DNA of 64,000 nucleotides from Bordetella genomosp. 1 (GTDB lineage Bacteria > Pseudomonadota > Gammaproteobacteria > Burkholderiales > Burkholderiaceae_B): NCBI RefSeq assembly GCF_002261335.1, contig NZ_NEVL01000003.1:124001-188000 (forward strand). The letters are read 5' to 3'. Below the pieces are notes generated by a model. The model did no database searches, was not told the origin of the DNA, and was given only the letters and a program-made list of their open reading frames with translations. Below, piece after piece: positions 9,125 through 44,839 of the stretch (positions are counted from its first letter, which is position 1; every line of letters starts with the position of its first letter). Made by a program: the position numbers and the translations under genes.

Positions 9125-9138
9125 GCAAGAGGCGTGCC
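9125..9138 (-). promoter_or_regulatory. Sigma-54 promoter of the glgA-glgE-treS-glgB operon
   Basis: On the minus strand the element reads GGCACGCCTCTTGC: -24 GG and -12 GC separated by exactly 10 nt, matching the RpoN consensus. The predicted transcript start is near 9113, before glgA. It is 173 bp from the divergent site for the exported protein, so an activator could bind between them; no clear UAS was recognised. Confidence 0.8.
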
Positions 9139-9311
9139 CGGCATGCGGCAGCGCACCAATCCGGGTGGATAGGGCGCCTTCGTGGGGCCACGCGCCGGGG
9201 GTGGGCGCCCGCTCCTGCGACGGCACGTCGCGCGCCGCGCACGCGTGCCACGCGCGCGTCACGTGCCCGCCCCGCGCGTGGTGCGCACGCCTGCGTTACG
9301 CACGCGAGGCG
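9139..9311. other. Spacer between divergent sigma-54 promoters
   Basis: No gene is apparent. The stretch is rich in short CACG/CGTG elements and TGCGTTACGCA (9292-9302), a near-palindrome that could be part of an activator site. This is the widest divergent spacer in the island and so the best place to look for an enhancer site. Confidence 0.3.
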
Positions 9312-9325
9312 GGCACGGGCCTTGC
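9312..9325 (+). promoter_or_regulatory. Sigma-54 promoter of the small exported protein gene
   Basis: GGCACGGGCCTTGC with correct GG-N10-GC spacing. The predicted start near 9337 leaves a leader of about 30 nt containing the GAGGAG ribosome site of the gene at 9367. Confidence 0.8.
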
Positions 9326-9366
9326 GACAGCTCGGGTTCAGTCCAACCACACCGAGGAGATCCCTC

Positions 9367-9732
9367 ATGAAAATCCGAGCTCCGATGTGCGCCCTCGTTC
9401 TGATGGGGGCCGTCCTGGCACCGGCCGGCGCTGCCTACGCGCAGAACGCCTATCCGGCCGCGCCGTCCGTGTCGCCCAACGACGGCACCGCCACGCCGCC
9501 GAACCGTCCGGTGCCCGAAGGCCAGACGCCGCCGGCCCCGGTCCAGGGCACGATGCAGGGCACCAATCCGCCCAATCTGGACACCACGAAGAAGCTCGAT
9601 GGCAATGCGCCCGCAACGCGCAAGAATGACCTGCCGAACGCGCCGCGCGAAGCCAACGACAACGTGCCGCGCACCAACAGCCAGGGCGCCGCGCCTCCTC
9701 CGGGATATCCGAACACCGGCGGCTCGAAGTAA
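9367..9732 (+). CDS. Small exported proline/asparagine-rich protein of unknown function
   Basis: A 121-aa protein with a clear Sec signal peptide (MKIRAPMCALVLMGAVLAPA, cleavage probably after AYA near residue 24). The mature part is low-complexity, rich in Pro, Asn, Thr and Gly, without cysteine or hydrophobic segments, probably disordered in the periplasm. GAGGAG lies 8 nt before the ATG. It is transcribed divergently from the glycogen operon under its own sigma-54 promoter and followed by a strong terminator. I recognise no family. Confidence 0.8.
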   Translation: MKIRAPMCALVLMGAVLAPAGAAYAQNAYPAAPSVSPNDGTATPPNRPVPEGQTPPAPVQGTMQGTNPPNLDTTKKLDGNAPATRKNDLPNAPREANDNVPRTNSQGAAPPPGYPNTGGSK

Positions 9733-9751
9733 GCGCCGTCCGTTCCCGGTC

Positions 9752-9790
9752 ATTGCCCGCGCAGCCCTTGGTTGCGCGGGCAATTTCTTT
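9752..9790 (+). terminator. Rho-independent terminator
   Basis: A perfect 12-bp stem (9752-9763 with 9773-9784), 9-nt loop and a T-rich tail TTTCTTTTG. It ends the exported-protein transcript 20 bp after its stop. Confidence 0.85.
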
Positions 9791-9837
9791 TGCGGCGGTG
9801 GTTGCGTCGCGGAAGGCCCTCCCGGGGCAGGGCTGCG

Positions 9838-9886
9838 GTGGCCAGCGCGGCGGCCAGCGCGGCGGCTAGCGCGGCGGCTAGCGCCT
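9838..9886. repeat. Short GC-rich 12-bp tandem repeat
   Basis: About four copies of a 12-bp unit close to GCCAGCGCGGCG. It lies between two facing terminators with no supported gene. In one minus frame it reads as an Ala-Leu-Ala-Ala repeat, but that frame has no ribosome site. Confidence 0.6.
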
Positions 9887-9960
9887 CCGTTGAAGCGGCA
9901 ACGGCGCGCCATGCCCTCACGGCACTGACGACGGCAATACCGGCAAAGCCGGCGGGGCGA

Positions 9961-9990
9961 AAAAAAACCCGGCCACGAGGGCCGGGTATC
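9961..9990 (-). terminator. Rho-independent terminator of rpoN
   Basis: Read on the minus strand: an 8-bp stem ACCCGGCC/GGCCGGGT with a 5-nt loop followed by eight Ts, 26 bp after the rpoN stop. Confidence 0.85.
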
Positions 9991-10015
9991 AAAAGGGAAT
10001 GACCCTCCGGAGATA

Positions 10016-11503
10016 TCAGTGTCGGCGCAGGTCCGCCGGTGCAAGGCGCATCTGGCCGCGATACTTGGTGACCGTGCGGCGCGCCACCACGATGCCGTTG
10101 GCGGCCAGGCGTTCTGTCAGCGTCACGTCGGACAGCGGTTCGCTCGGATCCTCGGCGTCGATCAGTTCCTTGATCAGCGCGCGCACGGCGGCCGAGGAGC
10201 AGGAGCCGCCCGATTCGGTGGCCAGCTCGCGCGAGAAGAAATGGCGGAACTCGAACACGCCGCGCGGCGTGACCATGTATTTGTTGGCCGTGGCGCGCGA
10301 CACGGTGGATTCGTGCATGTCGAGGTCGTCGGCCACTTCGCGCAGCATCAGCGGCCGCAGCGCCACCTCGCCGTATTCGAAGAAGCGCTGCTGGCGCTTG
10401 ACGATGGCCTCGGCCACGCGCTGGATCGTGGTGTAGCGCTGCTCCACGTTGCGCACCAGCCAGCGCGCTTCCTGCAGTTCCTGCGCCATCGGGCTGCGGT
10501 TGTCGACGCGGGCGCGGCGGAACAGGTCGGCATAGGTCTGGTACAGGCGCGCGCGCGGCATGGCCTGGCGGTTGGGCACCACGCGCCAGCGCGACTGGTA
10601 TTTGCTCACGTAGACGTCGGGCACCACATACGCGGGGGCCTGGTTGTCGTAGCGGCGGCCGGGCTTGGGATCGAGGCCGCGGATCAGCGCGCACGCCTGC
10701 TGCAGGTCCTCGGCTTCGCAGCCCAGCAGGCGCTGCAGGCCCTGCATGTCGTTGCGACCGAGTCGCTCGAGATGGTTTTCGATGATGTTGATCGCCAGCG
10801 CCTGGCCCGGACACTGGCGCGCACGCAGCTGCAGGAGCAGGCATTCGCGCAGGTCACGCGCGCCCAGGCCGGGCGCGTCCAGGCTCTGCACCAGCTTGAG
10901 GGCGGCCAGCCATTCGCCCTCGTCGGGCTCCGGGTCGAAACCGGCGTCGCCCGCCAGTTCGCACAGCGGCGTGCGCAGATAGCCATCGCTGTCGAGCGCG
11001 TCGATGATGAAGGCGGCCAGCGCGCGGTCGCGGTCGTTCACCGCGTAGCCGCTCAGTTCGTGCAGCAGGCGCTCGCACAGCGAGGGCGACGCGGCGACCC
11101 AATGCGCCAGGTCGTTGCCCTGCGCGCCGCTGCCGTGGCTGGTGGGATAGTCGCCCGAATACTCGCCGGGCGCGTCGCTGGCGTATTCGGGTGCGTAGTC
11201 GTTGTTGTCGGCGGGCGCGGCCTCGGCGGCGCCTTCCTCTCCGCCCGGGCCGGACGGCTCGGCGGTTTCGCCGCCCACGCTTTCGTTCCCGCCCGCGCCC
11301 AGCGTCGTCGGCATGCCGGCCACGCTCGGGTCGACGGGCATGTCGTCGGAGCTGTCCTCAAGAAAAGGATTGTTGGCCAACGCATGCTGGACGGCAGTGG
11401 TGAACTCCAGTGCCGACATTTGCAGCAGTTTGACGGACTGCTGCAGACGGGGGGCCAGCGTGGTCTGCTGGCGCAAACGCAATTCCTGGGCGGCGTAACT
11501 CAC
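10016..11503 (-). CDS. rpoN: RNA polymerase sigma-54 factor RpoN (island copy)
   Basis: A 495-aa sigma-54 factor. It has the Gln/Leu-rich region I (LRQQTTLAPRLQQSVKLLQMSALEF, activator interaction), an acidic low-complexity region II (about residues 50-115), the core-binding region and the C-terminal RpoN box reading ARRTVTKYRG (canonical ARRTVAKYRE), which contacts the -24 element. The start is GTG, with AAGGAG 7 nt upstream; the ATG 4 nt earlier is out of frame. The usual rpoN neighbours (lptB, hpf, ptsN) are absent. It sits among sigma-54 activators and sigma-54 promoters, so it is probably a second, dedicated copy, though the chromosomal copy cannot be seen here. A terminator follows. Confidence 0.95.
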   Translation of the reverse strand: MSYAAQELRLRQQTTLAPRLQQSVKLLQMSALEFTTAVQHALANNPFLEDSSDDMPVDPSVAGMPTTLGAGGNESVGGETAEPSGPGGEEGAAEAAPADNNDYAPEYASDAPGEYSGDYPTSHGSGAQGNDLAHWVAASPSLCERLLHELSGYAVNDRDRALAAFIIDALDSDGYLRTPLCELAGDAGFDPEPDEGEWLAALKLVQSLDAPGLGARDLRECLLLQLRARQCPGQALAINIIENHLERLGRNDMQGLQRLLGCEAEDLQQACALIRGLDPKPGRRYDNQAPAYVVPDVYVSKYQSRWRVVPNRQAMPRARLYQTYADLFRRARVDNRSPMAQELQEARWLVRNVEQRYTTIQRVAEAIVKRQQRFFEYGEVALRPLMLREVADDLDMHESTVSRATANKYMVTPRGVFEFRHFFSRELATESGGSCSSAAVRALIKELIDAEDPSEPLSDVTLTERLAANGIVVARRTVTKYRGQMRLAPADLRRH

Positions 11504-11687
11504 ACATATCTCCTTGATGACGTCGGCACGGGCCGGCGAGGTTCTACAGGGGGATATGAATGCAATATCCGTGCCAGCTAGGGTTATCCCTAGATCGAGG
11601 CAGGGCCTTCAGAGGGGAGCGGGGGGCGCGAGCGGGATTCGATAGGTAGGACGAGGGACACGTTTACCGCCGTCCGGTAAGAATTGC

Positions 11688-11701
11688 GCATGTGGCGTGC
11701 C
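11688..11701 (-). promoter_or_regulatory. Possible sigma-54 promoter upstream of rpoN
   Basis: Minus strand GGCACGCCACATGC: perfect -24 half and spacing, -12 half ATGC instead of TTGC. It would give a leader of about 173 nt for rpoN, suggesting autoregulation. Weaker than the other sites of the island. Confidence 0.45.
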
Positions 11702-11787: not shown

Positions 11788-12771
11788 TCAGGCGTCGCTG
11801 GCGCCGTAGGCGGCGAGGCGGTTGTAGAGCGTCTTGACGCTGATGCCCAGGGCCTGGGCGGCGCGCTGCTTGTCGTTGCCGCACTGGCGCAGGGTGGCCA
11901 GGATCAGGCTGCGCTGCGCATCCGCGAGCGCCGTGCCCACCGCGAAGTCGAGCTGGTCGGAGGCGTCGGCCAGCGGCGCGGTGGCGCGCGGCGCCATCTC
12001 CGGCCCGATCTCTTCGTCGGCCATGATGTAGGCGCGCTGCACGATGTTCTTGAGCTCGCGCACGTTGCCCGGCCAGTCGTAGCGCTGGAGCGCCTCCAGC
12101 ATGGCGGGCGCGAAGCGCTTCTTGCCGCGATGGGTCTGGTTGAGCTCGTCGAGCATGCGCTGCGCCAGCACCGGCACGTCCTCCGCCCGTTCGCGCAGCG
12201 GCGGCACGCGCAGCGGCACCACCAGCAGCCGGTGCAGGAAGTCTTCGCGCAGGCGGCCATCCTCGACCGCTTCGAGCGGATCGCGGTTGCTGGCGCAGAT
12301 CACGCGCACGTTGGCGCGCAGCAGATCGGTGCCGCCCACGCGCTGATAGGTGCCGGTCTCGAGCACGCGCAGGAAGTGCACCTGCATGTCGGTCGACATC
12401 TCGGTGACTTCGTCGAGGAAGAGGGTGCCGCCGCTGGCGTGTTCGAAGTAGCCGGCGTTTTGCGAGTGGGCGCCGGTGAAGCTGCCTTTCTCGTGGCCGA
12501 ACAGCAGCGCATGCGCCAGGCTGCGGCTGATTGCGCCGCAGTTCACGGCCACGAAGGGCCGGTCGGCGCGCGGGCTGCCGGCGTGGATCGCGCGCGCCAC
12601 GAGCTCCTTGCCCGAGCCGCTCTCGCCGATGATAAAGACCGACGCGTCGGTAGCGGCGGCCCGCTCGATCTGGCGGTTGAGTTGCTGCATCACCTCACTG
12701 ACGCCCAGCCGTTCGGGGTCCGGCGGGGACGGCCGGGCGGCGGGAGGGGGCGTGGAGCTGCGAGCGGGCAT
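11788..12771 (-). CDS. Sigma-54 activator without a regulatory domain (AAA+ plus Fis-type HTH)
   Basis: A 327-aa bacterial enhancer-binding protein. It starts almost directly at the AAA+ domain: Walker A GESGSGKE near residue 50, sigma-54 contact loop GSFTGA (canonical GAFTGA) near 98, Walker B GGTLFLDE near 113, R-finger region LREDFLHRL, then a C-terminal Fis HTH ([20 protein letters not shown]). No receiver, GAF or PAS domain is present, only a 25-residue Pro-rich leader, so activity may depend on expression level or a partner. It is divergent from the response regulator at 13081, whose HTH is nearly the same, so both may bind the same sites. It lies 284 bp upstream of rpoN on the same strand. 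Confidence 0.9.
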
Positions 12772-13080: not shown

Positions 13081-14475
13081 ATGCCACACCTGCTCGTCGT
13101 CGACGATGATGACGCCATCCGCGAGACACTCGCCGAGATCGGCCGCGAAAGCGGTTTCACGGTCGCGCAGGCGGGGTCGGTCCGCGACGCGGTGTTGCAA
13201 TGGGAACGCAAGCTGCCGGACCTGGTGCTCGCCGACGTGCGCCTGCCCGAGGGCAACGGCATGGACATCTTCCGCCGCGTGCCGATCGGCAATGCCGAAG
13301 TGGTGGTCATCACCGGCCACGGCAGCATGGACAGCGCGGTCGAGGCCCTGCGACTGGGCGCCACCGATTACCTGGTCAAGCCCATCAGCATGGAGCGGCT
13401 GCAGCAGATCATGGACCGCGTCGCCGGCACCGCCGACAGCACGCCGGCCGACCAGCCGTTTTCGGAAGAGGGGCGCTTCGGCCAGATGCTGGGCCGCTCC
13501 GAGGTGATGAAGCGCGTCTACGAGCAGCTCGCGCGCGTGGCCCCCACCGATGTGTCCACGCTGCTGATCGGCGAGAGCGGCACCGGCAAGGAGCTGGCCG
13601 CGCATGCGATCCACGATCTCAGCGCGCGTCGCCAGCGTCCGTTCGTGGCGGTCAACTGCGGCGCGATCTCGCCCAACCTGATCGAGAGCGAGCTGTTCGG
13701 CCACGAAAAGGGCAGCTTCACGGGCGCCGACCGCCAGCACAAAGGCTATTTCGAGCGCGCCGATGGCGGCACGCTGTTTCTCGACGAGGTCACCGAGATG
13801 CCGCTCGACCTGCAGGTCAAGCTGCTGCGGGTCCTCGAGACCGGCCATTTCATGCGCGTCGGCACCAATCGCGAGATCGCCTGCGACGTGCGCATCGTGG
13901 CGGCCACCAACCGCAGCCCCGAGCAGGCCGTGGCGCAAGGCCGGCTGCGTGAAGACCTGTATTACCGGCTCGGCGTGTTCCCGCTCGAGCTGCCGGCGCT
14001 GCGCGACCGCGGCGATGACGTACTGTTCATCTCCGAGCGCTTCCTGGCCGCGCAAAACAAGGAAAACGGCACCAACAAGCGTTTCACCGACGCCGCCCGG
14101 ACCGCGATCCTGCAGCACGGCTGGCCCGGCAACGTGCGCGAACTGAAGAACTTCGTGCGGCGCGCCTATATCCTGGCCGAGACCGACGACATCACCGACG
14201 AGTCGCTGCTGCCGCAGACCTCGCCCAAGGCGCCGCGCGCCGGCGGCGCGCAGAACGATGCGCGCGTGAGCGTGCAGGTCGGCGCGACGCTGGCCGAAGC
14301 CGACCGGCGCCTCATCCTGGCCACGCTGGCGCGCTGCGGCGGCGTGAAGAAGCAGACGGCGGCGATGCTCGGCATCAGCGCCAAGACCCTCTACAACCGC
14401 CTCGAGGAATACGAGCGCGAGGGCTTTCTGATCCCGCAGGACAAAGACGCGGCCGACGCGCGCGAAGGCGCCTGA
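13081..14475 (+). CDS. Sigma-54-dependent response regulator (NtrC family), orphan
   Basis: A 464-aa regulator. Receiver domain at residues 1-120 (acidic DDDD pocket near 9-12, phospho-acceptor Asp in LVLADVRLP near 53, Lys in YLVKP near 101), AAA+ domain (Walker [15 protein letters not shown] loop, Walker B GGTLFLDE) and Fis [23 protein letters not shown]. It lacks an adjacent histidine kinase. The ATG at 13081 is preceded by AGAAGGAAAG. It is the likely signal-responsive activator of the surrounding sigma-54 promoters, inferred from co-location with rpoN and the promoter array. Confidence 0.92.
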
Positions 14476-14560: not shown

Positions 14561-14574
14561 GGCACGGCAGTTGC
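14561..14574 (+). promoter_or_regulatory. Sigma-54 promoter of the TPP enzyme gene
   Basis: GGCACGGCAGTTGC, exact -24/-12 spacing. The predicted start near 14586 leaves a 31-nt leader with GGAGAG before the ATG at 14617. Confidence 0.82.
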
Positions 14575-16703: not shown

Positions 16704-16717
16704 GGCACGCCACTTGC
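16704..16717 (+). promoter_or_regulatory. Sigma-54 promoter of the DUF883 gene at 16782
   Basis: GGCACGCCACTTGC with exact spacing. Predicted start near 16729; the leader of about 53 nt ends with AAGGAG. Confidence 0.82.
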
Positions 16718-17614: not shown

Positions 17615-17628
17615 GCAAGGCCCATTCC
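17615..17628 (-). promoter_or_regulatory. Sigma-54-like promoter of the exported BON gene
   Basis: Minus strand GGAATGGGCCTTGC: spacing and -12 half are right, the -24 half is GGAAT instead of GGCAC/T. The predicted leader is 70 nt. It is divergent from the site at 17679, with 50 bp between. Confidence 0.6.
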
Positions 17629-17678: not shown

Positions 17679-17692
17679 GGCATGCCTCTTGC
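17679..17692 (+). promoter_or_regulatory. Sigma-54 promoter of the BON/PRC-barrel operon
   Basis: GGCATGCCTCTTGC, exact spacing. Predicted start near 17704, before CAGGAGG and the ATG at 17775. Confidence 0.82.
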
Positions 17693-19871: not shown

Positions 19872-19885
19872 GCAAGTGACGTGCC
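19872..19885 (-). promoter_or_regulatory. Sigma-54 promoter of the 84-aa protein/DUF378 operon
   Basis: Minus strand GGCACGTCACTTGC, exact -24/-12 spacing. It is divergent from the site at 19923, only 37 bp away. Confidence 0.82.
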
Positions 19886-19922: not shown

Positions 19923-19936
19923 GGCACGCCAGTTGC
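19923..19936 (+). promoter_or_regulatory. Sigma-54 promoter of the 49-aa protein/PIG-L operon
   Basis: GGCACGCCAGTTGC in the context TTGGCACG, the best consensus match in the window. Predicted start near 19948; the leader carries CTGGAG before the ATG at 19979. Confidence 0.85.
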
Positions 19937-20868: not shown

Positions 20869-20882
20869 GGTACAGCGCTTGC
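20869..20882 (+). promoter_or_regulatory. Sigma-54-like promoter of the glycine-zipper/DUF4142 operon
   Basis: GGTACAGCGCTTGC: correct spacing and -12 half, -24 half GGTAC. The predicted leader of 61 nt ends in GAAGGAG before the ATG at 20955. Confidence 0.6.
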
Positions 20883-23278: not shown

Positions 23279-23292
23279 GCAAGCCCCATGCC
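23279..23292 (-). promoter_or_regulatory. Sigma-54 promoter of the SDR gene
   Basis: Minus strand GGCATGGGGCTTGC, exact spacing. Only 9 bp separate it from the divergent element at 23302. Confidence 0.8.
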
Positions 23293-23301: not shown

Positions 23302-23315
23302 GGAACGCCAGTTGC
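23302..23315 (+). promoter_or_regulatory. Sigma-54-like promoter of the AsmA-like gene
   Basis: GGAACGCCAGTTGC: perfect -12 half and spacing, -24 half GGAAC. Predicted start near 23327, leader 87 nt. Confidence 0.62.
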
Positions 23316-27817: not shown

Positions 27818-27831
27818 GCAAGCGCTGTGCC
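27818..27831 (-). promoter_or_regulatory. Sigma-54 promoter of topoisomerase IB (leaderless)
   Basis: Minus strand GGCACAGCGCTTGC, exact spacing. The -12 C lies 14 nt before the ATG, so the start would be at or next to the initiation codon. Only 6 bp separate it from the divergent site at 27838. Confidence 0.78.
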
Positions 27832-27837: not shown

Positions 27838-27851
27838 GGCATGGCGGTTGC
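27838..27851 (+). promoter_or_regulatory. Sigma-54 promoter of the PfpI gene
   Basis: GGCATGGCGGTTGC, exact spacing. Predicted start near 27863, with AAGGAG in the leader before the ATG at 27912. Confidence 0.8.
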
Positions 27852-31226: not shown

Positions 31227-31240
31227 GCAAGCGCCATGCC
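31227..31240 (-). promoter_or_regulatory. Sigma-54 promoter of the DUF3182 operon (leaderless)
   Basis: Minus strand GGCATGGCGCTTGC, exact spacing. The -12 C is 13 nt before the ATG. It is divergent from the pgi promoter, 38 bp away. Confidence 0.82.
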
Positions 31241-31278: not shown

Positions 31279-31292
31279 GGCACGGCGTTTGC
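31279..31292 (+). promoter_or_regulatory. Sigma-54 promoter of the glucose-6-phosphate isomerase gene
   Basis: GGCACGGCGTTTGC in the context TTGGGCACGG, exact spacing. Predicted start near 31304, leader 39 nt. Confidence 0.82.
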
Positions 31293-35331: not shown

Positions 35332-35342
35332 GGAGGCGGATC

Positions 35343-37907: not shown

Positions 37908-38704
37908 TGAAAGTCGATACCCTGATGAAGACCACCGCGCGCTACCGCCCCTACGCCTGGCGCGCCAAGATCGGCCTGATCGTGCCGTCCACCAATACGG
38001 TCAACGAGCCGGAGTTCTATCGCATGGCGCCCGACGGCGTCACCATCCACTCCGGGCGGGCGATCAACGCCGGGCCGGCCACCCAGGAGAACTACGACCG
38101 CATGGCGCGCGGCGTGCTCGAGGCCGCCGACCTGATCAGGACCGCCGAGGTCGACGTGGTGGCCTATGGCTGCACCTCCGGCTCGATCGTCTGCTCGCTC
38201 GACGAACTGTGCGACGGCATGAGCGAGCGGGCCGGCGCGCCGGCCATCGCCACCGCCGGCGCGGTGGTGGCCGCGCTGCGCGCGCTCGGCGCCCGGCGGG
38301 TCGCGGTGGGCACCCCCTACATCGACTTCGTCAACCTGCGCGAACGCGAGTTCCTCGAGCAGTACGGCTTCGACGTGGTCTCGATCGAGGGCCTGGACCT
38401 GGGCCACACGCAGGAGGAGCGGCGCGACATCGGCCGCGTGCCGCCGCAGGTGGCCTATCAACTCGCCCGCGACATCGACCGGCCCGACGCCGATGCGATC
38501 TTCCTGTCTTGCACCAACCTGGCCACGATCGACATGATCGAGCGCATCGAGGACGAGCTGGGCAAGCCGGTGGTGACGAGCAACCAGGCCACCCTGTGGG
38601 GCTGCCTGCGCCTGCTCGGCCTGAACGCGGCGGTGCCGGGCTACGGCCGTCTGTTGCGCGAGCAACTGGCGCCGATCACGCGCGCCGACTACGCGCCGCG
38701 GTGA
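37904..38704 (+). CDS. Maleate isomerase / arylmalonate decarboxylase family (Asp/Glu racemase superfamily)
   Basis: 266 aa. KIGLIVPSTNTVNEPEFYRMAP, first catalytic Cys in VAYGCTSGSIV and second in IFLSCTNLATID, as in maleate cis-trans isomerases that use two cysteines. Product in this pathway not known. ATG 37904 overlaps the aldolase stop; ATGs at 37907 and 37925 are alternatives. Confidence 0.87.
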   Translation: MMKVDTLMKTTARYRPYAWRAKIGLIVPSTNTVNEPEFYRMAPDGVTIHSGRAINAGPATQENYDRMARGVLEAADLIRTAEVDVVAYGCTSGSIVCSLDELCDGMSERAGAPAIATAGAVVAALRALGARRVAVGTPYIDFVNLREREFLEQYGFDVVSIEGLDLGHTQEERRDIGRVPPQVAYQLARDIDRPDADAIFLSCTNLATIDMIERIEDELGKPVVTSNQATLWGCLRLLGLNAAVPGYGRLLREQLAPITRADYAPR

Positions 38705-38708
38705 TGCC

Positions 38709-39995
38709 ATGATTCCGAGTCCCGATCCCGACCTGGGCCTGGCCGCCCGCATGTTCGCGGCACTGCGCGAGCTGAGCTTCGACGGACGCGGCGTGACGCG
38801 CGATGCCTACGGCGCGGGCGAGCAGCGGGCCCACGGGCTGGTGCGCGAGCAGGCCGCGGCGCTCGGCCTGGAGGTGGGCGTGGACGGCAGCGGCAATCTC
38901 TACGCAACCTTGCCGGGCCGCGACCGTTCGCTGCCGGCGCGCTACACCGGCTCGCACCTGGACTCGGTGCCGGTGGGCGGCAATTTCGACGGCGCGGCGG
39001 GCGTCGTCGCCGGCATGGCGGTACTGGCGGGCTGGCGCGCGCAGGGGTTCACGCCGGATGCCGACGTGACCGTGATGGCGATCCGCGCCGAGGAGAGTAC
39101 CTGGTTTCCCTATTCGTACCTCGGCAGCAAGGCCGCCTTCGGCCTGACCGGCCCGGAGGTGCTGGACCTGCGCCGGGCCGACACCGGCCGCAGCCTGCGC
39201 GAGCACCTGCGCGAGATCGGGCTCGACCCGGACCGCTATGGCAGTGCTGCGCTGGACCCCGCGCGCATCGACCGTTTCGTCGAGCTCCACATCGAGCAGG
39301 GCCCGCATCTGGTGGAAGACGGCCTGCCCGTGGGCATCGTGACGGGCATCCGCGGCAGCTTGCGCTATCGCGACATGCGCTGGCTCGGCCGCTACGACCA
39401 CTCCGGCGCGGTGGGCCGCCACAGCCGCAGCGACGCGGTGCGCGCCGCCGCCCGCTGGATGAGCGCGATCGACGACGCCTGGGACACGCTGGCGCGGCGC
39501 GGCGACGACCTGGTCGTGACGGTGGGGCAGATCGGCACCAATCCGCGCGAGCACGCCTTCAGCAAGGTGGCGGGCGAGCTGGACTGCTGCCTGGACGTGC
39601 GCAGTCTGAGCGAAGAGGTGCTGGCGGCCTACGACCGCATCGTGCGCGATTGCGCCGCCGATGCCGAGGCGCGCACCGCGACGCGCGTGGCGTTCGGCCC
39701 CCGCACGGGCTCGCAGCCGGCGCGCATGGACGTGGGGCTGGTGGCGCGGCTGAGCGCCTGCGCCGAGGCGCGCGGTATCGCGGCGCGCACGATGGCCAGC
39801 GGCGCCGGCCACGACACGGCGGTGTTTGCGCAGCAGGGCGTGCGCTCGGCCATGATTTTCGTGCGCAACCAACACGGTTCGCACAACCCCGACGAGGCGA
39901 TGGACCTCGACGACTTCGGGCTGGGGGCTCGGCTCCTGGCTGATATCCTGGCGGCCCCCGTGCCGGAACATGATCCCGTGAGGAGTGCAGTATGA
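38709..39995 (+). CDS. M20-family amidase/hydantoinase-carbamoylase type Zn hydrolase
   Basis: 428 aa. Metal ligands are seen in YTGSHLDSVPVGGNFDGAAGV (His, Asp), IRAEESTWF (Glu), VELHIEQGPHLVE (His) and the C-terminal GAGHDTAVF. This is the N-carbamoyl-amino acid hydrolase / allantoate or ureidoglycolate amidohydrolase group. The substrate is probably an N-carbamoyl or amide intermediate, in keeping with a creatininase-fold neighbour. It overlaps the dehydrogenase gene by ATGA. Confidence 0.9.
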   Translation: MIPSPDPDLGLAARMFAALRELSFDGRGVTRDAYGAGEQRAHGLVREQAAALGLEVGVDGSGNLYATLPGRDRSLPARYTGSHLDSVPVGGNFDGAAGVVAGMAVLAGWRAQGFTPDADVTVMAIRAEESTWFPYSYLGSKAAFGLTGPEVLDLRRADTGRSLREHLREIGLDPDRYGSAALDPARIDRFVELHIEQGPHLVEDGLPVGIVTGIRGSLRYRDMRWLGRYDHSGAVGRHSRSDAVRAAARWMSAIDDAWDTLARRGDDLVVTVGQIGTNPREHAFSKVAGELDCCLDVRSLSEEVLAAYDRIVRDCAADAEARTATRVAFGPRTGSQPARMDVGLVARLSACAEARGIAARTMASGAGHDTAVFAQQGVRSAMIFVRNQHGSHNPDEAMDLDDFGLGARLLADILAAPVPEHDPVRSAV

Positions 39996-40966
39996 AGTGT
40001 CTGATCGTTCAGCCGATCCATGAGCAGGGCCTCGCGCTGCTGCGCCAGGCAGGCATCGATTGCGTGACGCCGGCGTCGGCGACGATGGCCGAGGTGGCGC
40101 GCGCGATTCCCGCCTGCGAGGCCGTCATCACGCGCAACGCCGGCCTGGATGGCGCCGCCATCGCGGCCGCGGCGCGGCTGCGCATCATCGGCAGTCATGG
40201 CGCGGGCACCAACATGGTCGACGTGGCCGCGGCCACGGCGGCCGGCATCCCGGTGGTCAACACCCCGGGCGCCAACGCGCGCTCGGTGGCCGAACTGGTG
40301 ATCGCGATGGCGCTGGCACTGGTCAAGCGCACGCTCGAGCTCGATGCGGCCGTGCGCACCGGCCACTGGGATGCGCGCTATGCGCCGGGCCTGCGCGAGC
40401 TGGCCGGCGCCACGCTCGGCATCGTGGGCTTTGGCCAGATCGGCCGCGCGCTGGCCGGGATCGCCGCCCAAGGCTTCGGCATGCGGGTGCTGGTGTATTC
40501 GCCGTCGGTGCCGCCGGCCGAGATCGAGGCCGCCGGCTGTGCGCTGGCGCCCGACCTGGCGGCGCTGCTGGCCGCGGCCGACATCGTGTCGCTGCACCGG
40601 CCGGGCCAGGCCGGCGCGCCGCCCATGATCGATGCGGCGGCGCTGGCGCGGATGAAGCCGGGTGCCTTGCTCATCAACACGGCGCGCGGCGGCCTGGTCG
40701 ACGAACGCGCGCTGGCCGACAGCCTCGCGGCCGGGCGGCTGGGCGGGGCCGGCATCGACGTGTTCTCGACCGAACCGCCGCCGGCCGACCATCCGCTCAT
40801 CGGCGCGCCCAACGTGGTGCTGGCGCCGCACGCGGGCGGCAGCACCGACGAGGCGCTCGCGCGCACGGCCGTGGCCGTGGCGCAGCAGGTGGTGGACGCG
40901 CTGCAGGGCAGGCGGCCGCGGCACGTCGTCAATCCGGAGGTGTGGGAGCGGCGCCGCAGCGCCTGA
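39992..40966 (+). CDS. D-2-hydroxyacid dehydrogenase (NAD-dependent)
   Basis: 324 aa. Rossmann motif ATLGIVGFGQIGRALAGIA (near residue 145), catalytic Arg in INTARGGLVDE, Glu in VFSTEPPPADHP and His in LAPHAGGSTDE. Last gene of the 34.3-41.0 kb operon. It would interconvert a 2-hydroxy- and 2-oxo-acid, complementing the aldolase. The exact substrate is unknown. Confidence 0.92.
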   Translation: MKCLIVQPIHEQGLALLRQAGIDCVTPASATMAEVARAIPACEAVITRNAGLDGAAIAAAARLRIIGSHGAGTNMVDVAAATAAGIPVVNTPGANARSVAELVIAMALALVKRTLELDAAVRTGHWDARYAPGLRELAGATLGIVGFGQIGRALAGIAAQGFGMRVLVYSPSVPPAEIEAAGCALAPDLAALLAAADIVSLHRPGQAGAPPMIDAAALARMKPGALLINTARGGLVDERALADSLAAGRLGGAGIDVFSTEPPPADHPLIGAPNVVLAPHAGGSTDEALARTAVAVAQQVVDALQGRRPRHVVNPEVWERRRSA

Positions 40967-41020: not shown

Positions 41021-42019
41021 CTACGACGACCCGAGGCGGGCGCCGCCGTGGCGCCTGCGCAGGGCGAGGCGGGTCTCCACGGCCGCGTACGACAGCACCG
41101 CGATCGCGAGCGGCACCAGCGCGTAGAGCGCGCGATAGGTGAGGGCGGCGCCCAGCACCTGGTAGGTGGGCAGCTGGCCCGAGAAGGCCGCCACGAAGAT
41201 GGCTTCGGTGGTGCCCAGGCCGCCGGGAATGCGGGTGATGAGCGCGGCGAAGCTGGTGCACAGCAGCACCCCCAGCACGGCGGCGTAGTCGGCCTTGCCC
41301 TGCAGCAGGACCCACATGATGCCGCCCATGATGGCCCACGAGAGCGCGGCCAGCAGGCTCTGCGCCACGGCCATGCGGCCGCCGGGCAGCACCAGGTGCT
41401 GGCCGAACAGGTGATAGCTGCGCTGGCGCGCGCGGGCGCAGTAGGCCACGTAGACGACGGCGAGGATCAGGATCACCACGCCGACGATGCGCAGCACGCC
41501 CTTGCCGATCTCCCAGCTGGCCGGCACGGGCACCGCGCCGGCCGCGAACACGGCGCCGCCGATCCACGCATAGCCGATCCAGTTGGTGGCCGCCGAGAAC
41601 AGCGCGACCCTCGTTGCGACCGACTTGCGCACGCCGAGCTTGGCATAGAGGCGCAGGCGCATGCCCAGCCCTCCCACCAGCACGCCGAGGTTGAGGTTCA
41701 TCGCATAACTGATGAGCGCCACGCCCGCCACCTGTGACCAGGGCAGCTTGTGCCGCGTGTAGCGCTGCGCGAGCAGGTCCAGGCTGGCATAGGCGGCATA
41801 GCCCGCGACCACCAGCGCGCAGGCGATGCCGATGTTGCGCGCCGGGATGTCGCGCATGGCGCGCCAGACCTGCGGCCAGTCGATGCTGCGCGCCACATGG
41901 AAGATCAGGCCCGCGACCACCAGCAGCACCACGACGATGAGGGTGCGCTTGATGGCCGGCCAGTGGGCGCGGCAACGGCGCCGGAGCCGGTGCAGCGTGT
42001 GGGTTCGTAGGTGTCTCAT
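41021..42019 (-). CDS. YbhN/UPF0104 (lysylphosphatidylglycerol synthase TM region) membrane protein
   Basis: 332 aa with about eight membrane segments, a basic N-terminus and LPG_synthase_TM features (SIDWPQVWRAMRDIPARNIGIACALVVAGYAAYASLDLLAQRYT, RIPGGLGTTEAIFVAAFSGQLP). In E. coli ybhN-clsB-ybhP are neighbours. Here the same trio occurs (phosphatase-like 43298, clsB 42045, ybhN 41021), supporting the assignment. It starts 26 bp after clsB. Confidence 0.88.
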   Translation of the reverse strand: MRHLRTHTLHRLRRRCRAHWPAIKRTLIVVVLLVVAGLIFHVARSIDWPQVWRAMRDIPARNIGIACALVVAGYAAYASLDLLAQRYTRHKLPWSQVAGVALISYAMNLNLGVLVGGLGMRLRLYAKLGVRKSVATRVALFSAATNWIGYAWIGGAVFAAGAVPVPASWEIGKGVLRIVGVVILILAVVYVAYCARARQRSYHLFGQHLVLPGGRMAVAQSLLAALSWAIMGGIMWVLLQGKADYAAVLGVLLCTSFAALITRIPGGLGTTEAIFVAAFSGQLPTYQVLGAALTYRALYALVPLAIAVLSYAAVETRLALRRRHGGARLGSS

Positions 42020-42044
42020 GTCGGTTCTGCCCGCGCCTGGCGCG

Positions 42045-43301
42045 TCAAGAAGTTTCGGGGCCGGTGCGCGGCGCGGCGTCGGTCAGCGTGTCGGCGCCCG
42101 GCTGCGCGTCGGCGTGCTGGCTGGTCTGGCTGCGGCCGAGCGTCTTCAGGCGCGGCTTGTGGGCGGGCAGGTTGCCGGCCCAGGCCGGGAAGCGGCGCAG
42201 GAAGTGATAGATCACCACGCCGAACCAGAGCCGGCGCAGCTTGCGCGCGGCCTGGGGCGGCTTGGGCGCGAGCTTGCAGTGCTCGCTGATGAGCGCCTCC
42301 AGCGATTCGCGCAGCGCCCGGTTCAGCCCGGCGTCGTGCACCACCACGTTGGCTTCGAGATTGAGCGCGAGGCTGAGCGGATCGAGGTTGCTCGAGCCCA
42401 CCGTGCTCCAGGCGCCGTCGACGCAGGCGACCTTGCCGTGCAGCGGCCGCTCGCAGTATTCGTAGATCTGCACGCCGGCGCGCGCGAGGTAGTCGTACAG
42501 CATGCTGGCGGCGTACTTGGCCACCGGCATGTCGGGCTGGCCCTGCAGCACCAGGCGCACCCGCACGCCGCGCCGCGCCGCCTTGGTCAGGTCGCGCAGC
42601 AGGTTGTAGCCGGGAAAGAAATACGCGTTGGCGATCAGGATGTCTTCGCGCGCCGAGCGGATGCCGGCGCGGTAGTAGCGTTCGATGTCGGTGCGATGCG
42701 CGTCGTTGTCGCGCACCACCAGCCGGCCCACGCCGTCGGCGCCCGGCGCTGCCTCGGCGGCCGGACGGCGGCGCCAGCGCCGGCGCTGGCGCGGTCCGAG
42801 CGCGGCACGCGCGTAGTTGGCCACGTCGGTGGCGAGCGGGCCTCTGATGCGCACGGCGTAGTCCTGCTTGGCCTCGGGGCCCGACTCGATCAGGTGATCC
42901 GCGCCGAAGTTGATGCCGCCGATGAAGGCGAGCGTCTCGTCGACCGCCACGATCTTGCGGTGCATCCGGCGAAACAGGTTGGTGCGCATGCCGAGCAGGC
43001 GCGGGCGTGGATCGAACACGTGCAGCCGCACGCCGGCCTGCGTCATGCCGGAGATGAACTCTTCGCTCAGCTCGTCGGAGCCGTAGCCGTCGACGGTGAG
43101 ATCCACCGACACGCCGCGCTGGGCGGCATCGATCAGCGTCTGGCGCAACTCGCGCCCGACCTCGTCGTCGAACAGGATGAAGGTCTCGACCAGCACCTCG
43201 CGTTCGGCGCGGGCGATGGCCTCGTTTACGGCCGGAAAGTAGTCGCCACCGTTGATCAGCAGCTTGAATTCGTTGTTGGCGCGCCAGGGCAGGTTCATCA
43301 T
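42045..43301 (-). CDS. clsB: Cardiolipin synthase B (phospholipase D family)
   Basis: 418 aa with two HKD motifs: HRKIVAVDETLAFIGGIN (near residue 117) and HGKVACVDGAWSTVGSSNLDPLS (near 300). N-terminal NEFKLLINGGDYFPAVNEAIARAEREVLVETFIL is typical of ClsB, which makes cardiolipin from phosphatidylglycerol and other lipids at the inner membrane. The first of two consecutive ATGs overlaps the upstream stop (ATGA). An Arg/Ala-rich insert lies near residues 178-195. Confidence 0.93.
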   Translation of the reverse strand: MMNLPWRANNEFKLLINGGDYFPAVNEAIARAEREVLVETFILFDDEVGRELRQTLIDAAQRGVSVDLTVDGYGSDELSEEFISGMTQAGVRLHVFDPRPRLLGMRTNLFRRMHRKIVAVDETLAFIGGINFGADHLIESGPEAKQDYAVRIRGPLATDVANYARAALGPRQRRRWRRRPAAEAAPGADGVGRLVVRDNDAHRTDIERYYRAGIRSAREDILIANAYFFPGYNLLRDLTKAARRGVRVRLVLQGQPDMPVAKYAASMLYDYLARAGVQIYEYCERPLHGKVACVDGAWSTVGSSNLDPLSLALNLEANVVVHDAGLNRALRESLEALISEHCKLAPKPPQAARKLRRLWFGVVIYHFLRRFPAWAGNLPAHKPRLKTLGRSQTSQHADAQPGADTLTDAAPRTGPETS

Positions 43302-44098
43302 AGTGCGATCTCCGCGGCCAGCGGCACGTGATCCGACAGCTCCGACCAGGGCCGCGAGGCCAGGGGCAGGGCGCGCCAGTTGCGCACGTTGCGCACATAG
43401 ATGCGGTCCAGGCGCAGGAAGGGCCAGCGCGCCGGGAAGGTGCGCGCCGGGCGGCCGTAGCGGGTGGCGTAGACCTCGCTCACGCCGCAGCCGCGCATGG
43501 TGCGCTCCGCGTTCAGGCGCCAGTCGTTGAAGTCGCCCGCCACCAGCACCGGCTCGCCCTCGGGCAGGCCATGGATCAGCTGGCACAGGCGCGCCATCTG
43601 GCGGCGGCGCTGCCATTCGCGCAGGCCGAGATGCACGCACACAGTGTGCACGTGCTCGCCCTTCGCGCCGGCCGCCAGCACGCAGTGCAGCAGTCCGCGC
43701 GACTCGTGCTTGCCTTCGCTCACGTCGTGGTTGTCGTACTTCACGATCGGATACTTCGACAGCACCGCGTTGCCGTGATGGCCATGCGGATAGACGGCGT
43801 TGCGGCCGTAGGCGTAGTCGCGCCACAGCGAGTCCGCCAGGAATTCATATTGCGACGTCGTGGGCCAGTCGGCGTGCCGCGCCGCGTGCCGCTGGTGTTC
43901 GCCCAGCACCTCCTGCAGAAACACCACGTCGGGCGCGGCCTGACGCAGGGCCTCGCGCAGCTCGTGCAGCATGAAGCGGCGGTTGAACTGGGTGAATCCC
44001 TTGTGGGTGTTGACGGTCAGGACCTTGAGCGTGCCCGGGCCGTGCGGCGGCATGTCGCCGACTTCGGGATGGACAGACTCGGGGGGCGGGAAAGGCAT
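43298..44098 (-). CDS. Endonuclease/exonuclease/phosphatase family protein (YbhP-like)
   Basis: 266 aa. EEP fold: LKVLTVNTHKGFTQFNRRF, FLQEV (Glu ligand), HVHTVCVHLGLREWQR, VLVAGDFNDWR and ELSDHVPLAAEIAL (terminal SDHxP). E. coli YbhP sits with ClsB and YbhN, as here, pointing to phospholipid metabolism. GGAG lies before the ATG. First gene of the operon, under the sigma-54 element at 44134. Confidence 0.9.
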   Translation of the reverse strand: MPFPPPESVHPEVGDMPPHGPGTLKVLTVNTHKGFTQFNRRFMLHELREALRQAAPDVVFLQEVLGEHQRHAARHADWPTTSQYEFLADSLWRDYAYGRNAVYPHGHHGNAVLSKYPIVKYDNHDVSEGKHESRGLLHCVLAAGAKGEHVHTVCVHLGLREWQRRRQMARLCQLIHGLPEGEPVLVAGDFNDWRLNAERTMRGCGVSEVYATRYGRPARTFPARWPFLRLDRIYVRNVRNWRALPLASRPWSELSDHVPLAAEIAL

Positions 44099-44133: not shown

Positions 44134-44147
44134 GCAAGCGCCGTGCC
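44134..44147 (-). promoter_or_regulatory. Sigma-54 promoter of the ybhP-clsB-ybhN operon
   Basis: Minus strand GGCACGGCGCTTGC, exact spacing. Predicted leader 24 nt. Only 11 bp from the divergent site at 44159. Confidence 0.83.
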
Positions 44148-44158
44148 CACGGGCGGCA

Positions 44159-44172
44159 GGCATGGCGCTTGC
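44159..44172 (+). promoter_or_regulatory. Sigma-54 promoter of the 61-aa protein gene
   Basis: GGCATGGCGCTTGC, exact spacing. Predicted start near 44184. A second plus-strand match GGCAATGGCGTTGC (44111-44124) lies 48 bp upstream and is probably accidental. Confidence 0.83.
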
Positions 44173-44235
44173 TTATGCATTGCGGAGTTCTGGCTGACAG
44201 GCGCGCCGCGCCGGCCGTCCTTCAAGGAGACCGAT

Positions 44236-44421
44236 ATGTTGCATCTCATGCTTCCCAGCGACAGCTTCGCGCCGCAACCCCAGTACCTTCACGTGCCCCC
44301 CAAGCCCGAGCCCATCCCGCCCGGCTCGCCCCCGGGCGACCTGCCGGTGGATCCCGACAGCGACGAGCCCGAGGTCGACCTGCCGCCCGGTGACCAGGAG
44401 GCGCCGAAGCAGGTGCAGTGA
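44236..44421 (+). CDS. Small acidic Pro-rich protein, unknown
   Basis: 61 aa, begins MLHLMLPSDSFAPQPQYLHV and continues with Pro/Glu/Asp-rich repeats (PKPEPIPPGSPPGD..DPDSDEPEVDLPPGD). No signal or membrane segment. AAGGAG is 7 nt before the ATG. A single gene with its own sigma-54 promoter and terminator, divergent from the clsB operon. Confidence 0.72.
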   Translation: MLHLMLPSDSFAPQPQYLHVPPKPEPIPPGSPPGDLPVDPDSDEPEVDLPPGDQEAPKQVQ

Positions 44422-44440
44422 AGGAGCGACGGCGAAGACA

Positions 44441-44482
44441 GACGCGCGGCGGTGGGTTGGATCCCGCCGCCGCGTCTTTTTT
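44441..44482 (+). terminator. Rho-independent terminator
   Basis: A GACGCG-CGGCGG/CCGCCG-CCGCGTC imperfect stem followed by TTTTTT, 20 bp after the 61-aa gene. Confidence 0.75.
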
Positions 44483-44589
44483 GGAGGCTGGCGGCGCGTG
44501 CTGTTCTTGAGCCGCTCGCGCCGCGCGGCGTCGATAGGGGCGGAGCGCGCGCCGCGTTTACGGCCGACCTCGCCAACGCCAGGTGCGGA

Positions 44590-44745
44590 TCACTGTCCCA
44601 GCCCGCCCAGCCAGCGCGCCAGGAAGGCAACGCCTGCCAGCATCGCTGCGGCGATCAACCAGATCGTGGCGGCCCGGCGCAGACGCGGCTTGGGCGTCTC
44701 GTATCGAACGGGTGGCGGCGGACGGCGCTGCGGGTTCGCGGGCAT
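44590..44745 (-). CDS. 51-aa single-span membrane protein, unknown
   Basis: Begins MPANPQRRPPPPVRYETPKP, basic up to RLRR, then one membrane segment (AATIWLIAAAMLAGVAFLAR) and a short WLGGLGQ tail: a typical N-in small membrane protein. GGAG lies 8 nt before the ATG, with a sigma-54 element 26 nt upstream of the expected leader. Too small for most gene finders; the promoter and ribosome site support it. Confidence 0.65.
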   Translation of the reverse strand: MPANPQRRPPPPVRYETPKPRLRRAATIWLIAAAMLAGVAFLARWLGGLGQ

Positions 44746-44782
44746 GGGGGGCGAGCTCCAGAGAGGGGACGCCCAGTCGTCT

Positions 44783-44796
44783 GCAAGCGCTATGCC
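44783..44796 (-). promoter_or_regulatory. Sigma-54 promoter of the 51-aa membrane protein gene
   Basis: Minus strand GGCATAGCGCTTGC, exact spacing. Predicted start near 44771. Divergent from the site at 44826, 29 bp away. Confidence 0.8.
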
Positions 44797-44825
44797 GCGT
44801 GGCGTGGCCGGGATGCGCGGGTTCG

Positions 44826-44839
44826 GGCATGCCGCTTGC
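44826..44839 (+). promoter_or_regulatory. Sigma-54 promoter of the 54-aa/DUF3309 operon
   Basis: GGCATGCCGCTTGC, exact spacing. Predicted start near 44851, with AAGGAG in the leader. Confidence 0.82.

What the first reader, a model, noticed from the sequence alone, without database searches (positions are those of the whole stretch)
9125..44839. A sigma-54 regulon island: 21 -24/-12 promoters in 36 kb
Sixteen intergenic sites match GGCAY-N5-TTGC exactly and five more differ only in one half, all pointing at a gene start 1-173 nt downstream of the predicted transcript start. With equal base frequencies about one exact match is expected in both strands of 64 kb. The targets are storage, envelope and stress genes, most of unknown function, which is not the usual nitrogen or motility regulon. 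This looks like an undescribed sigma-54 general-stress/storage regulon.
Basis: partly seen in the sequence, partly recalled or inferred. Interest (0 to 1): 0.92.

Follow-up and report, generated by a model that had tools for sequence, protein, structure and literature searches.

The report
Second sigma-54 runs a stress regulon
A bacterium carries a second copy of an unusual transcription switch next to about twenty matching start signals in front of storage and stress-protection genes, and the same arrangement recurs in its relatives, which suggests that this family, which seems to lack the usual stress switch, may run its stress response in a different way.

Summary
The window has 19 exact GGCAY-N5-TTGC sites against 2.1 expected. 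Seventeen lie in 9125-44839, all intergenic by my gene calls, at 20 times the density of the rest of the genome.

The island carries a second rpoN (RpoN2) and two divergent sigma-54 activators. RpoN2 groups apart from RpoN1. The sites are conserved: 29 of 30 rpoN2 and 29 of 30 glgA genes have one upstream; the single glgA miss is the only genome without a detected RpoN2 among those 30. glgA and a poxB-like gene occur almost only with RpoN2: 48 of 50 and 31 of 31 genomes.

New here: two promoter classes. rpoN2 promoters have T at -25 in 27 of 29; target promoters in 3 of 69. rpoN2 promoters carry a TTAC-N8/9-GTAA palindrome, also seen at a few targets (GT4, CsbD) but not at glgA or the other island promoters. 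No RpoS passed the cut-off in 151 family genomes.

Best reading: an RpoN1-to-RpoN2 cascade driving a general-stress and storage regulon. The stress role and the division of labour are inferred. Ten searches of an open-access library showed no description.

The parts
10016..11503 (-). rpoN2, second sigma-54 factor of the genome
   Evidence: Sigma54 AID, CBD and DBD domains; TIGR02395 448 bits against cut-off 277; two rpoN in the genome; groups apart from RpoN1
11788..12771 (-). orphan enhancer-binding protein: AAA+ plus Fis-type HTH, no N-terminal sensor domain
   Evidence: recognition helix nearly the same as in the next gene
13081..14475 (+). NtrC-like response regulator with receiver, AAA+ and HTH; no histidine kinase family seen in the 40 of 61 called genes scanned with Pfam
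   Evidence: present beside the orphan activator in 20 of 20 relative loci read, which were chosen for their match to the orphan activator
11562..11575 (-). class I (TGGCAC) -24/-12 promoter of rpoN2
   Evidence: exact site upstream of rpoN2 in 29 of 30 loci, T at -25 in 27 of 29
11656..11688 (.). TTAC-N9-GTAA palindrome with flanks, predicted activator site for rpoN2
   Evidence: exact palindrome in 19 of 28 rpoN2 upstream regions
7479..9023 (-). glgA, first gene of a glgA - GlgE-like - TreS/maltokinase operon (967-9023)
9125..9138 (-). -24/-12 promoter of the glgA operon
   Evidence: conserved in 29 of 30 glgA loci, absent from both glgA genomes without a detected RpoN2
9312..9325 (+). -24/-12 promoter of the small protein gene 9385-9732
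   Evidence: same arrangement in several relatives
14561..14574 (+). -24/-12 promoter of the poxB-like TPP enzyme gene 14617-16395
   Evidence: exact in 14 of 30 orthologues; 12 of the other 16 have a one-mismatch site within 350 bp, 4 have two mismatches
16704..16717 (+). -24/-12 promoter of the DUF883 gene 16752-17117
17679..17692 (+). -24/-12 promoter of the BON-domain gene 17775-18662, followed by a PRC-barrel gene
17615..17628 (-). one-mismatch -24/-12 site upstream of the BON gene 17228-17533
19872..19885 (-). -24/-12 promoter of genes 19552-19806 and DUF378 19248-19538
   Evidence: sites upstream of orthologues in several relatives
19923..19936 (+). -24/-12 site upstream of the PIG-L-like gene 20140-20862, 203 nt away; the only island target site with T at -25
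20869..20882 (+). one-mismatch site upstream of 20955-21569 and DUF4142 21566-22180
23279..23292 (-). -24/-12 promoter of the SDR gene; the conserved part of the protein starts about 131 nt downstream
23302..23315 (+). one-mismatch site upstream of the DUF748 gene 23414-24571
27818..27831 (-). -24/-12 promoter of the topoisomerase IB gene 26746-27804
27838..27851 (+). -24/-12 promoter of the DJ-1/PfpI gene 27912-28457
31227..31240 (-). -24/-12 promoter of the DUF3182 gene 30051-31214 and following genes (hydrolase, CinA-like)
31279..31292 (+). -24/-12 promoter of the glucose-6-phosphate-isomerase-like gene 31406-33160
44134..44147 (-). -24/-12 promoter of the endonuclease/phosphatase - PLD - LPG-synthase-TM gene row (41021-44098)
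44159..44172 (+). -24/-12 promoter of the small gene 44236-44421
44783..44796 (-). exact -24/-12 site, no called gene downstream within 250 nt
44826..44839 (+). -24/-12 site upstream of the small ORF 44890-45054 (the ORF is uncertain)

Best explanation
The island is the hub of a regulon run by a second sigma-54 factor, RpoN2. Proposed working: (1) a signal reaches two divergently encoded activators, one an NtrC-like response regulator and one an orphan activator without a sensor domain, which have nearly the same DNA-recognition helix. (2) They bind a TTAC-N8/9-GTAA palindrome upstream of rpoN2 and switch it on from a canonical TGGCAC..TTGCW promoter using the housekeeping RpoN1. (3) RpoN2 then reads core-type promoters that lack T at -25, in front of glycogen/trehalose (GlgE-pathway), envelope, membrane, DNA-protection and small stress-protein genes, both in the island and elsewhere. 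The effect would be a general-stress or stationary-phase programme in a family in which I found no RpoS. Shown: the sites, their conservation, the two promoter classes, the palindrome at rpoN2 and at a few targets, the separate RpoN2 group and the co-occurrence. Inferred: that RpoN2 reads class II promoters, that these two activators are the ones in play, and that the signal is stress or starvation.
For: Seventeen exact sites in 36 kb, all intergenic, 20 times the density elsewhere. Exact sites upstream of 29 of 30 rpoN2 and 29 of 30 glgA genes; reversed-pattern control 0 of 30 in each. Neither of the two glgA genes in genomes without a detected RpoN2 (G008, G036) has a site. In 20 relative loci, chosen by their match to the orphan activator, the activator pair is in 20 and rpoN2 within the 20 kb in 16. 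RpoN2 groups apart from RpoN1. glgA 48 of 50 and poxB-like 31 of 31 occur in RpoN2 genomes, which are 65 of 151. T at -25: rpoN2 27 of 29; glgA 0 of 29, poxB-like 1 of 14, SDR 1 of 13, island 1 of 16, 3 of 69 when the three repeats are removed; in the 20 relative loci rpoN2 14 of 15, other sites 8 of 88. In the own genome the 7 of 33 other intergenic sites with T precede glutamine synthetase, three ABC binding proteins, an aldehyde dehydrogenase, a hydrolase and a SnoaL gene, while CsbD, DUF1328, DUF4142, Hsp20 and DUF421 genes have no T. The palindrome-plus-promoter pattern is in 26 of 65 RpoN2 genomes and 1 of 86 others; in the own genome it marks a GT4 and a CsbD gene, both with class II promoters. 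[quoted passage not shown] Passages of PMC4676750: the two proteins are not interchangeable.
Against: The palindrome is not found at glgA (0 of 29), poxB-like (0 of 14), SDR (0 of 13) or the other island promoters (0 of 16), so how most class II promoters are activated is open. Genome-wide counts of V-GGCAY sites do not separate RpoN2 from RpoN2-less species: in the window's genus 20-27 per Mb in three with RpoN2, 17-31 per Mb in four without. SDR orthologues have an exact site in only 13 of 29 usable RpoN2 loci. One rpoN2 locus (L185) has no exact site, nor has the B. multivorans rpoN2, whose nearest site has one mismatch. Only two glgA genomes without a detected RpoN2 exist in the sample; one (G036) is a fragmented assembly with an activator match beside glgA, so its rpoN2 may be missing from the data. 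Class II targets elsewhere in the genome are not all of stress type (TetR, GAF/PAS, cytochrome c, COX1-type oxidase). Orthologous promoters are not independent draws. In passages read, Ralstonia rpoN2 mutants showed no phenotype in virulence or metabolism. No expression data.
Confidence: 0.68

Rival explanations
1. The sites are genuine sigma-54 promoters of a stress and storage regulon, but RpoN1 and RpoN2 read them alike; the -25 difference reflects base composition or promoter strength, not a division of labour.
For: Both proteins keep the HEST[VI]SRAT helix and an ARRTV.KYR box. In passages of PMC4676750 Ralstonia RpoN2 partly replaces RpoN1 and complements an E. coli rpoN mutant. In the island alone, 1 T of 16 is not below chance at an assumed p of 0.15 (P=0.28).
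Against: rpoN2 promoters keep T in 27 of 29 while glgA promoters have it in 0 of 29; in the same 20 relative loci 14 of 15 against 8 of 88. Pooled class II promoters have less T than an assumed 16% predicts (3 of 72, P=0.002; three window promoters are counted twice in the 72, and relatives are not independent). RpoN1 and RpoN2 differ at many positions at more than 85% within each group, some of them in the DNA-binding domain. Glycogen and poxB-like genes track RpoN2 presence.
Confidence: 0.2
2. It is a nitrogen- or carbon-limitation storage regulon rather than a general stress response: class II promoters answer an unlinked nitrogen or carbon sensor kinase through the NtrC-like regulator.
For: Glycogen and trehalose genes head the island. 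In PMC4371752 (passages) rpoN2 is induced in minimal medium. The regulator's best curated match is NtrC, though below its cut-off (388 against 558.6 bits).
Against: Many targets are DUF883, BON, PRC-barrel, DUF4142, CsbD, DUF1328, Hsp20, topoisomerase IB and PfpI-type genes. The neighbourhood of the related rpoN2 in B. multivorans adds Ku and LigD. Glutamine synthetase is class I.
Confidence: 0.2
3. The sites are not promoters: they are a repeated palindrome-like element or a composition artefact of a 70% G+C genome.
For: The element is short, the window is 70% G+C, and 29 of 71 inspected sites elsewhere lie in coding sequence.
Against: Shuffles give 2.1; reversed control 1 against 22. Orientation and gene-facing position are consistent, and sites stay upstream of the same genes across genera while the surrounding sequence is hardly conserved.
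Confidence: 0.03

Closest known systems
rpoN1/rpoN2 of Ralstonia solanacearum GMI1000 (PMC4371752, PMC4676750; passages read)
   Same: A second rpoN with its own canonical sigma-54 promoter. The rpoN2-type copy of 'Burkholderiaceae bacterium 26' (49% identical; recalled as a Ralstonia relative, no call shows it) lies beside an activator pair and groups with RpoN2. That the Ralstonia rpoN2 itself belongs to the group was not tested.
   Different: In the passages read, no target set or function was known for RpoN2 ('its role remains enigmatic'). Here a target set, two promoter classes and a gene-content association are found.
RpoS general stress response of gamma- and other betaproteobacteria
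   Same: Similar kinds of target genes: BON, CsbD, DUF883, pyruvate-oxidase-like, PfpI, SDR, glycogen/trehalose (that these are RpoS targets in E. coli is recalled, not tested).
   Different: Sigma-54-type promoters. No RpoS over cut-off in 151 family genomes.
EcfG/PhyR general stress response of alphaproteobacteria (recalled)
   Same: A dedicated sigma factor heading a set of small stress, storage and DNA-repair genes.
   Different: An ECF sigma with an anti-sigma partner switch, against sigma-54 plus enhancer-binding proteins here.
PspF and the phage shock response
   Same: An activator made only of AAA+ and HTH, without a sensor domain.
   Different: Below the PspF curated cut-offs (258.5 against 443.55 bits, 206 against 529); no PspA family among the 40 of 61 called window genes scanned with Pfam.
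Multiple RpoN paralogues of Rhodobacter sphaeroides (passages of PMC12316311; promoter discrimination there is recalled)
   Same: Paralogous sigma-54 factors with separate gene sets.
   Different: There one serves nitrogen limitation and one flagella; here the second serves a storage and stress gene set, and the separating base is at -25.
Third-replicon (pC3) stress tolerance in the Burkholderia cepacia complex (Agnoli 2014, not held; known through passages of PMC5167703)
   Same: A B. multivorans megaplasmid carries a related rpoN2 amid Ku/LigD, DUF892, BON, SDR and DUF4142 genes with 11 exact sites in 29 kb, at least one of them inside the rpoN gene.
   Different: I saw no statement linking that tolerance to RpoN2. 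That this megaplasmid is pC3 is my inference.

Membership tests
Sigma-54 (RpoN) regulon | -24/-12 elements (GG..GC cores, fixed spacing) upstream of genes, more than chance | tested here: met
Sigma-54 (RpoN) regulon | an RpoN protein with activator-, core- and DNA-binding domains | tested here: met
Sigma-54 (RpoN) regulon | AAA+ activator with FTGA loop and DNA-binding domain | tested here: met
   the loop reads GSFTGA in both
Sigma-54 (RpoN) regulon | upstream activator-binding sites at the promoters | tested here: inconclusive
   palindrome at rpoN2 (19 of 28) and at a GT4 and a CsbD gene of the own genome, not detected at glgA, poxB-like, SDR or the other island promoters
Sigma-54 (RpoN) regulon | transcription lost in the rpoN mutant | not testable with these tools
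   no expression data
RpoN2 paralogue group | groups apart from the housekeeping RpoN1 | tested here: met
   30 RpoN2 on one side of a branch (95/92), joined with three copies of other lineages at 100/100; 21 RpoN1 at 100/100; unrooted tree, some long rows
RpoS regulon | RpoS sigma factor in the genome | tested here: not met
   0 of 151 over cut-off including own; positive control over cut-off in 5 of 8 named genomes
PspF phage shock system | PspF equivalog score | tested here: not met
   258.5 against 443.55 and 206 against 529
NtrC nitrogen regulon | NtrC equivalog score | tested here: not met
   388.3 against 558.6
General stress response | induction by several unrelated stresses or stationary phase | not testable with these tools
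   gene content only

The most novel reading that the evidence does not exclude
A bacterial family without RpoS runs its general stress response through sigma-54. It uses a two-step sigma-54 cascade in which RpoN1 makes RpoN2 from a canonical enhancer-bearing promoter, and RpoN2 reads a distinct core promoter, marked by the absence of T at -25 and mostly by the lack of a recognisable enhancer, so that two sigma-54 holoenzymes share one cell with little cross-talk.
Probability: 0.4. Interest if true: 0.9.

Novelty: new variant of a known kind. Interest (0 to 1): 0.75.

Why it matters
General stress responses are usually taught as the business of RpoS, SigB or EcfG, and sigma-54 as the sigma factor of nitrogen, motility and catabolism (recalled). 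A sigma-54 programme for stress and storage genes in a family with no detected RpoS would add another design. It could also give a function to rpoN2, whose role in Ralstonia was called enigmatic after mutants showed no virulence or metabolic phenotype (passages). It offers simple tests: stress survival of rpoN2 deletions and swaps of one base at -25. Sorting sigma-54 promoters by paralogue would improve regulon predictions in bacteria with two rpoN genes.

Tried and rejected
Genome-wide site counts as a test of RpoN2 dependence: rejected. Class II counts per Mb overlap between RpoN2 and RpoN2-less species of the window's genus (only the 7 genomes of the genus were compared), most likely because coding matches dominate. 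The reversed pattern is too low a control for this.

A common enhancer for all island promoters: not found. The palindromic motif search gave weak motifs, some of which look like parts of the sigma-54 sites. The TTAC-N8/9-GTAA palindrome is found at rpoN2 promoters and a few others. The glgA upstream regions show no block conserved in all beyond the promoter.

GSFTGA loop as a mark of RpoN2 activators: dropped, because the comparison set was itself fetched with a pattern containing that loop.

SDR orthologues as a marker: weak, 13 of 29 usable RpoN2 loci; in genomes without an RpoN2 of this type, 0 of 2 (G008, G085) and 1 of 5 with a divergent rpoN nearby. L288 was dropped because it held only 12 bases upstream.

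The plasmid search gave only rpoN copies below 60% identity; B. stagnalis came without annotation and with 3 sites. Composition-artefact readings were rejected. The tRNA-Ala call at 25690 overlaps a gene call and was not followed.

Counts: the pooled 72 class II promoters count three window promoters twice (glgA, poxB-like, SDR); without the repeats it is 3 of 69. Of the 81 listed genome sites outside the window (100 of 148 were listed) 71 were inspected. Of 33 targets 29 were scanned with Pfam; L311, L321, L323 and L334 were not. Handles and counts from the tables were typed by hand into.
Full report
Observation. The exact pattern GGCAY-N5-TTGC occurs 19 times in the window against 2.14 in shuffles. 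Seventeen lie in 9125-44839, all intergenic by my gene caller; of the other two, one is inside a gene. With one mismatch allowed, 22 intergenic sites face a gene within 250 nt in the island (16 exact, 6 one-mismatch) and 1 outside; the reversed control gives 1 and 2. The genome has 148 exact sites, so the island is about 20 times denser than the rest. Of 71 sites outside the window that I inspected, 42 were intergenic and 33 had a called target within 350 nt. These 71 are of the 81 outside sites among the 100 listed of 148, so the survey is partial.

Anatomy. The island holds a second rpoN (10016-11503), an orphan activator with AAA+ and HTH only (11788-12771), and a divergent NtrC-like response regulator (13081-14475). 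The two activators have nearly the same recognition helix, LGIS.KTLYNRL. Around them lie glgA, a GlgE-like protein and a TreS-maltokinase fusion, a poxB-like TPP enzyme, DUF883, BON, PRC-barrel, DUF378, DUF4142, SDR, DUF748, topoisomerase IB, DJ-1/PfpI, CinA-like, DUF3182 and isomerase-like genes, and an endonuclease/phosphatase - PLD - LPG-synthase-TM row. A LysR, TctC, creatininase and peptidase stretch (33237-40966) has no sites and looks unrelated.

Relatives. The window's assembly was compared with 150 genomes of its family, drawn from a larger group. One of them, G132, coincides with the genome behind the Achromobacter aloeverae locus (same coordinates of the RpoD-like hit), so the family is probably Alcaligenaceae (inference). 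RpoN2-type proteins (403 bits or more) occur in 65 of 151 genomes. In 20 relative loci, chosen by their match to the orphan activator, the activator pair is always present and rpoN2 is within the 20 kb in 16; the rest of the gene set varies. An unrooted tree of 54 RpoN sequences (30 best RpoN2, 21 RpoN1, 3 others) puts the 30 RpoN2 on one side of a branch (95/92), joined at 100/100 with copies from Caballeronia, B. multivorans and 'Burkholderiaceae bacterium 26', and all 21 RpoN1 apart at 100/100; some rows are long.

Conservation of the sites. Within 350 bp upstream there is an exact site at 29 of 30 rpoN2, 29 of 30 glgA and 14 of 30 poxB-like genes; reversed controls 0, 0 and 1. Of the 16 poxB-like genes without one, 12 have a one-mismatch site. 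The one glgA without a site, L234, belongs to G008, the only genome without a detected RpoN2 among those 30. The second such glgA genome, G036, also has no site, but its assembly is fragmented and it carries an activator match beside glgA, so its rpoN2 may be missing from the data. glgA occurs in 50 of 151 genomes, 48 of them with RpoN2; the poxB-like gene in 31 of 151, all with RpoN2; the SDR in 43, 36 of them with RpoN2. In the window's own genus the three species with RpoN2 have glgA and the poxB-like gene and the four without have neither. The genes are often far from rpoN2 (for instance 0.3 Mb apart in G005, on other contigs in G090), so linkage alone does not explain this; shared ancestry partly may.

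Two promoter classes. The base just before the GG separates the promoters. It is T in 27 of 29 rpoN2 promoters, but in 0 of 29 glgA, 1 of 14 poxB-like, 1 of 13 SDR and 1 of 16 other island promoters. In the 20 relative loci it is T in 14 of 15 rpoN2 promoters and in 8 of 88 other exact sites. Among 33 intergenic sites elsewhere in the own genome, 7 have T; their targets are glutamine synthetase, three ABC binding proteins, an aldehyde dehydrogenase, a hydrolase and a SnoaL gene. The 26 without T include GT4, CsbD, DUF1328, DUF4142, an NTP-transferase, Hsp20, DUF421, response regulators, an AI-2E-type transporter and a COX1-type oxidase, but also TetR, GAF/PAS, cytochrome c and unassigned genes; 29 of the 33 targets were scanned. 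rpoN2 promoters also carry A or T after TTGC in 26 of 29, as in the textbook consensus (recalled). In the B. multivorans region 2 of 11 sites have T. I take the first kind to be RpoN1 promoters and the second to be RpoN2 promoters; this step is inferred.

Activator site. A palindrome TTAC-N8/9-GTAA, extended to GTAAGAAnTGC, lies upstream of rpoN2 in 19 of 28 loci. Joined to a site at 38-68 bp, it is found 41 times in 27 of 151 genomes, with the backward control in 6 genomes; 26 of the 27 carry RpoN2 (26 of 65 against 1 of 86). Its other targets include GT4-like and BON-type or other small genes, and in the own genome a GT4 and a CsbD gene, both with class II promoters. It is absent from glgA (0 of 29), poxB-like (0 of 14), SDR (0 of 13) and the other island promoters (0 of 16). 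This is the main gap in the model: either most class II promoters use a site too degenerate to see, or the activators act there without a clear site.

RpoS. TIGR02394 over its cut-off: 0 of 151 family genomes including the own; the weaker hits look like RpoD. As a positive control, 5 of 8 named genomes pass: Caballeronia, 'Burkholderiaceae bacterium 26', Gulbenkiania, Pelomonas and B. pseudomultivorans; Achromobacter, an Aquabacterium bin and Hydrogenophaga do not. So the family seems to lack RpoS, while Caballeronia and bacterium 26 have both RpoS and an RpoN2-type copy. Replacement of RpoS by RpoN2 is therefore a hypothesis for this family, not a rule; and no RpoN2 of this type was detected in 86 of the 151 genomes, which also lack RpoS.

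Literature (open-access library, ten searches). I saw no description of this regulon in the listings or passages. PMC4371752 (passages): Ralstonia rpoN2 has a TGGCAC..TTGCA promoter, is induced in minimal medium, is not expressed there in an rpoN1 mutant, and its role 'remains enigmatic'. [quoted passage not shown] PMC11722255 (passages): a sigma-54 regulon of unknown content in B. pertussis. PMC5167703 (passages): the third replicon of the B. cepacia complex is tied to stress tolerance, citing work I could not read. A B. multivorans megaplasmid carries an rpoN2 of this group amid Ku, LigD, DUF892, BON, SDR, DUF4142 and DUF1328 genes, with 11 exact sites in 29 kb, one of them inside rpoN; its rpoN2 has only a one-mismatch site upstream.

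Verdict. The sites are real and conserved, and they mark a regulon tied to a second sigma-54. Its gene content looks like that of a general-stress and storage response. The RpoN1-to-RpoN2 cascade with promoter sorting at -25 fits most of the sequence evidence and the one published expression result that I saw, but needs transcript mapping and deletions, and the activation of most class II promoters is unexplained.

Noticed in passing
L301, L302, L304, L305: Genera g2 and g5 carry a divergent variant: rpoN 36-40% identical, one activator, SDR, and in three of the four also DUF3182 and a hydrolase, but only 1-2 GGCAY-N5-TTGC sites in 16-19 kb. A changed promoter or a third RpoN type is possible.
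   Followed up: partly
window 33237-40966: A LysR regulator, two TctC binding proteins, a creatininase, a peptidase and a dehydrogenase lie inside the island without any sigma-54 site; looks like a later insertion.
   Followed up: no
window 967-9023: The glgA operon pairs glgA with a GlgE-like protein and a TreS-maltokinase fusion, the GlgE route from trehalose to glycogen (route recalled).
   Followed up: partly
L369: B. multivorans megaplasmid region around a related rpoN2 holds Ku, LigD, DUF892, UdgX, treY and malQ and 11 exact sites.
   Followed up: partly
window 27818-27851, 44134-44172: Divergent -24/-12 promoters almost back to back (6 and 11 bp between the motifs), leaving no room for a private upstream activator site.
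   Followed up: no
window 25690-25781 and 53257-53323: ARAGORN reports tRNA-Ala(agc) and tRNA-Arg(ccg); both overlap gene calls, and the first is probably false.
   Followed up: no
L166: A DUF4142 gene and a nucleotidyl transferase gene share a back-to-back pair of class II promoters outside the island.
   Followed up: no
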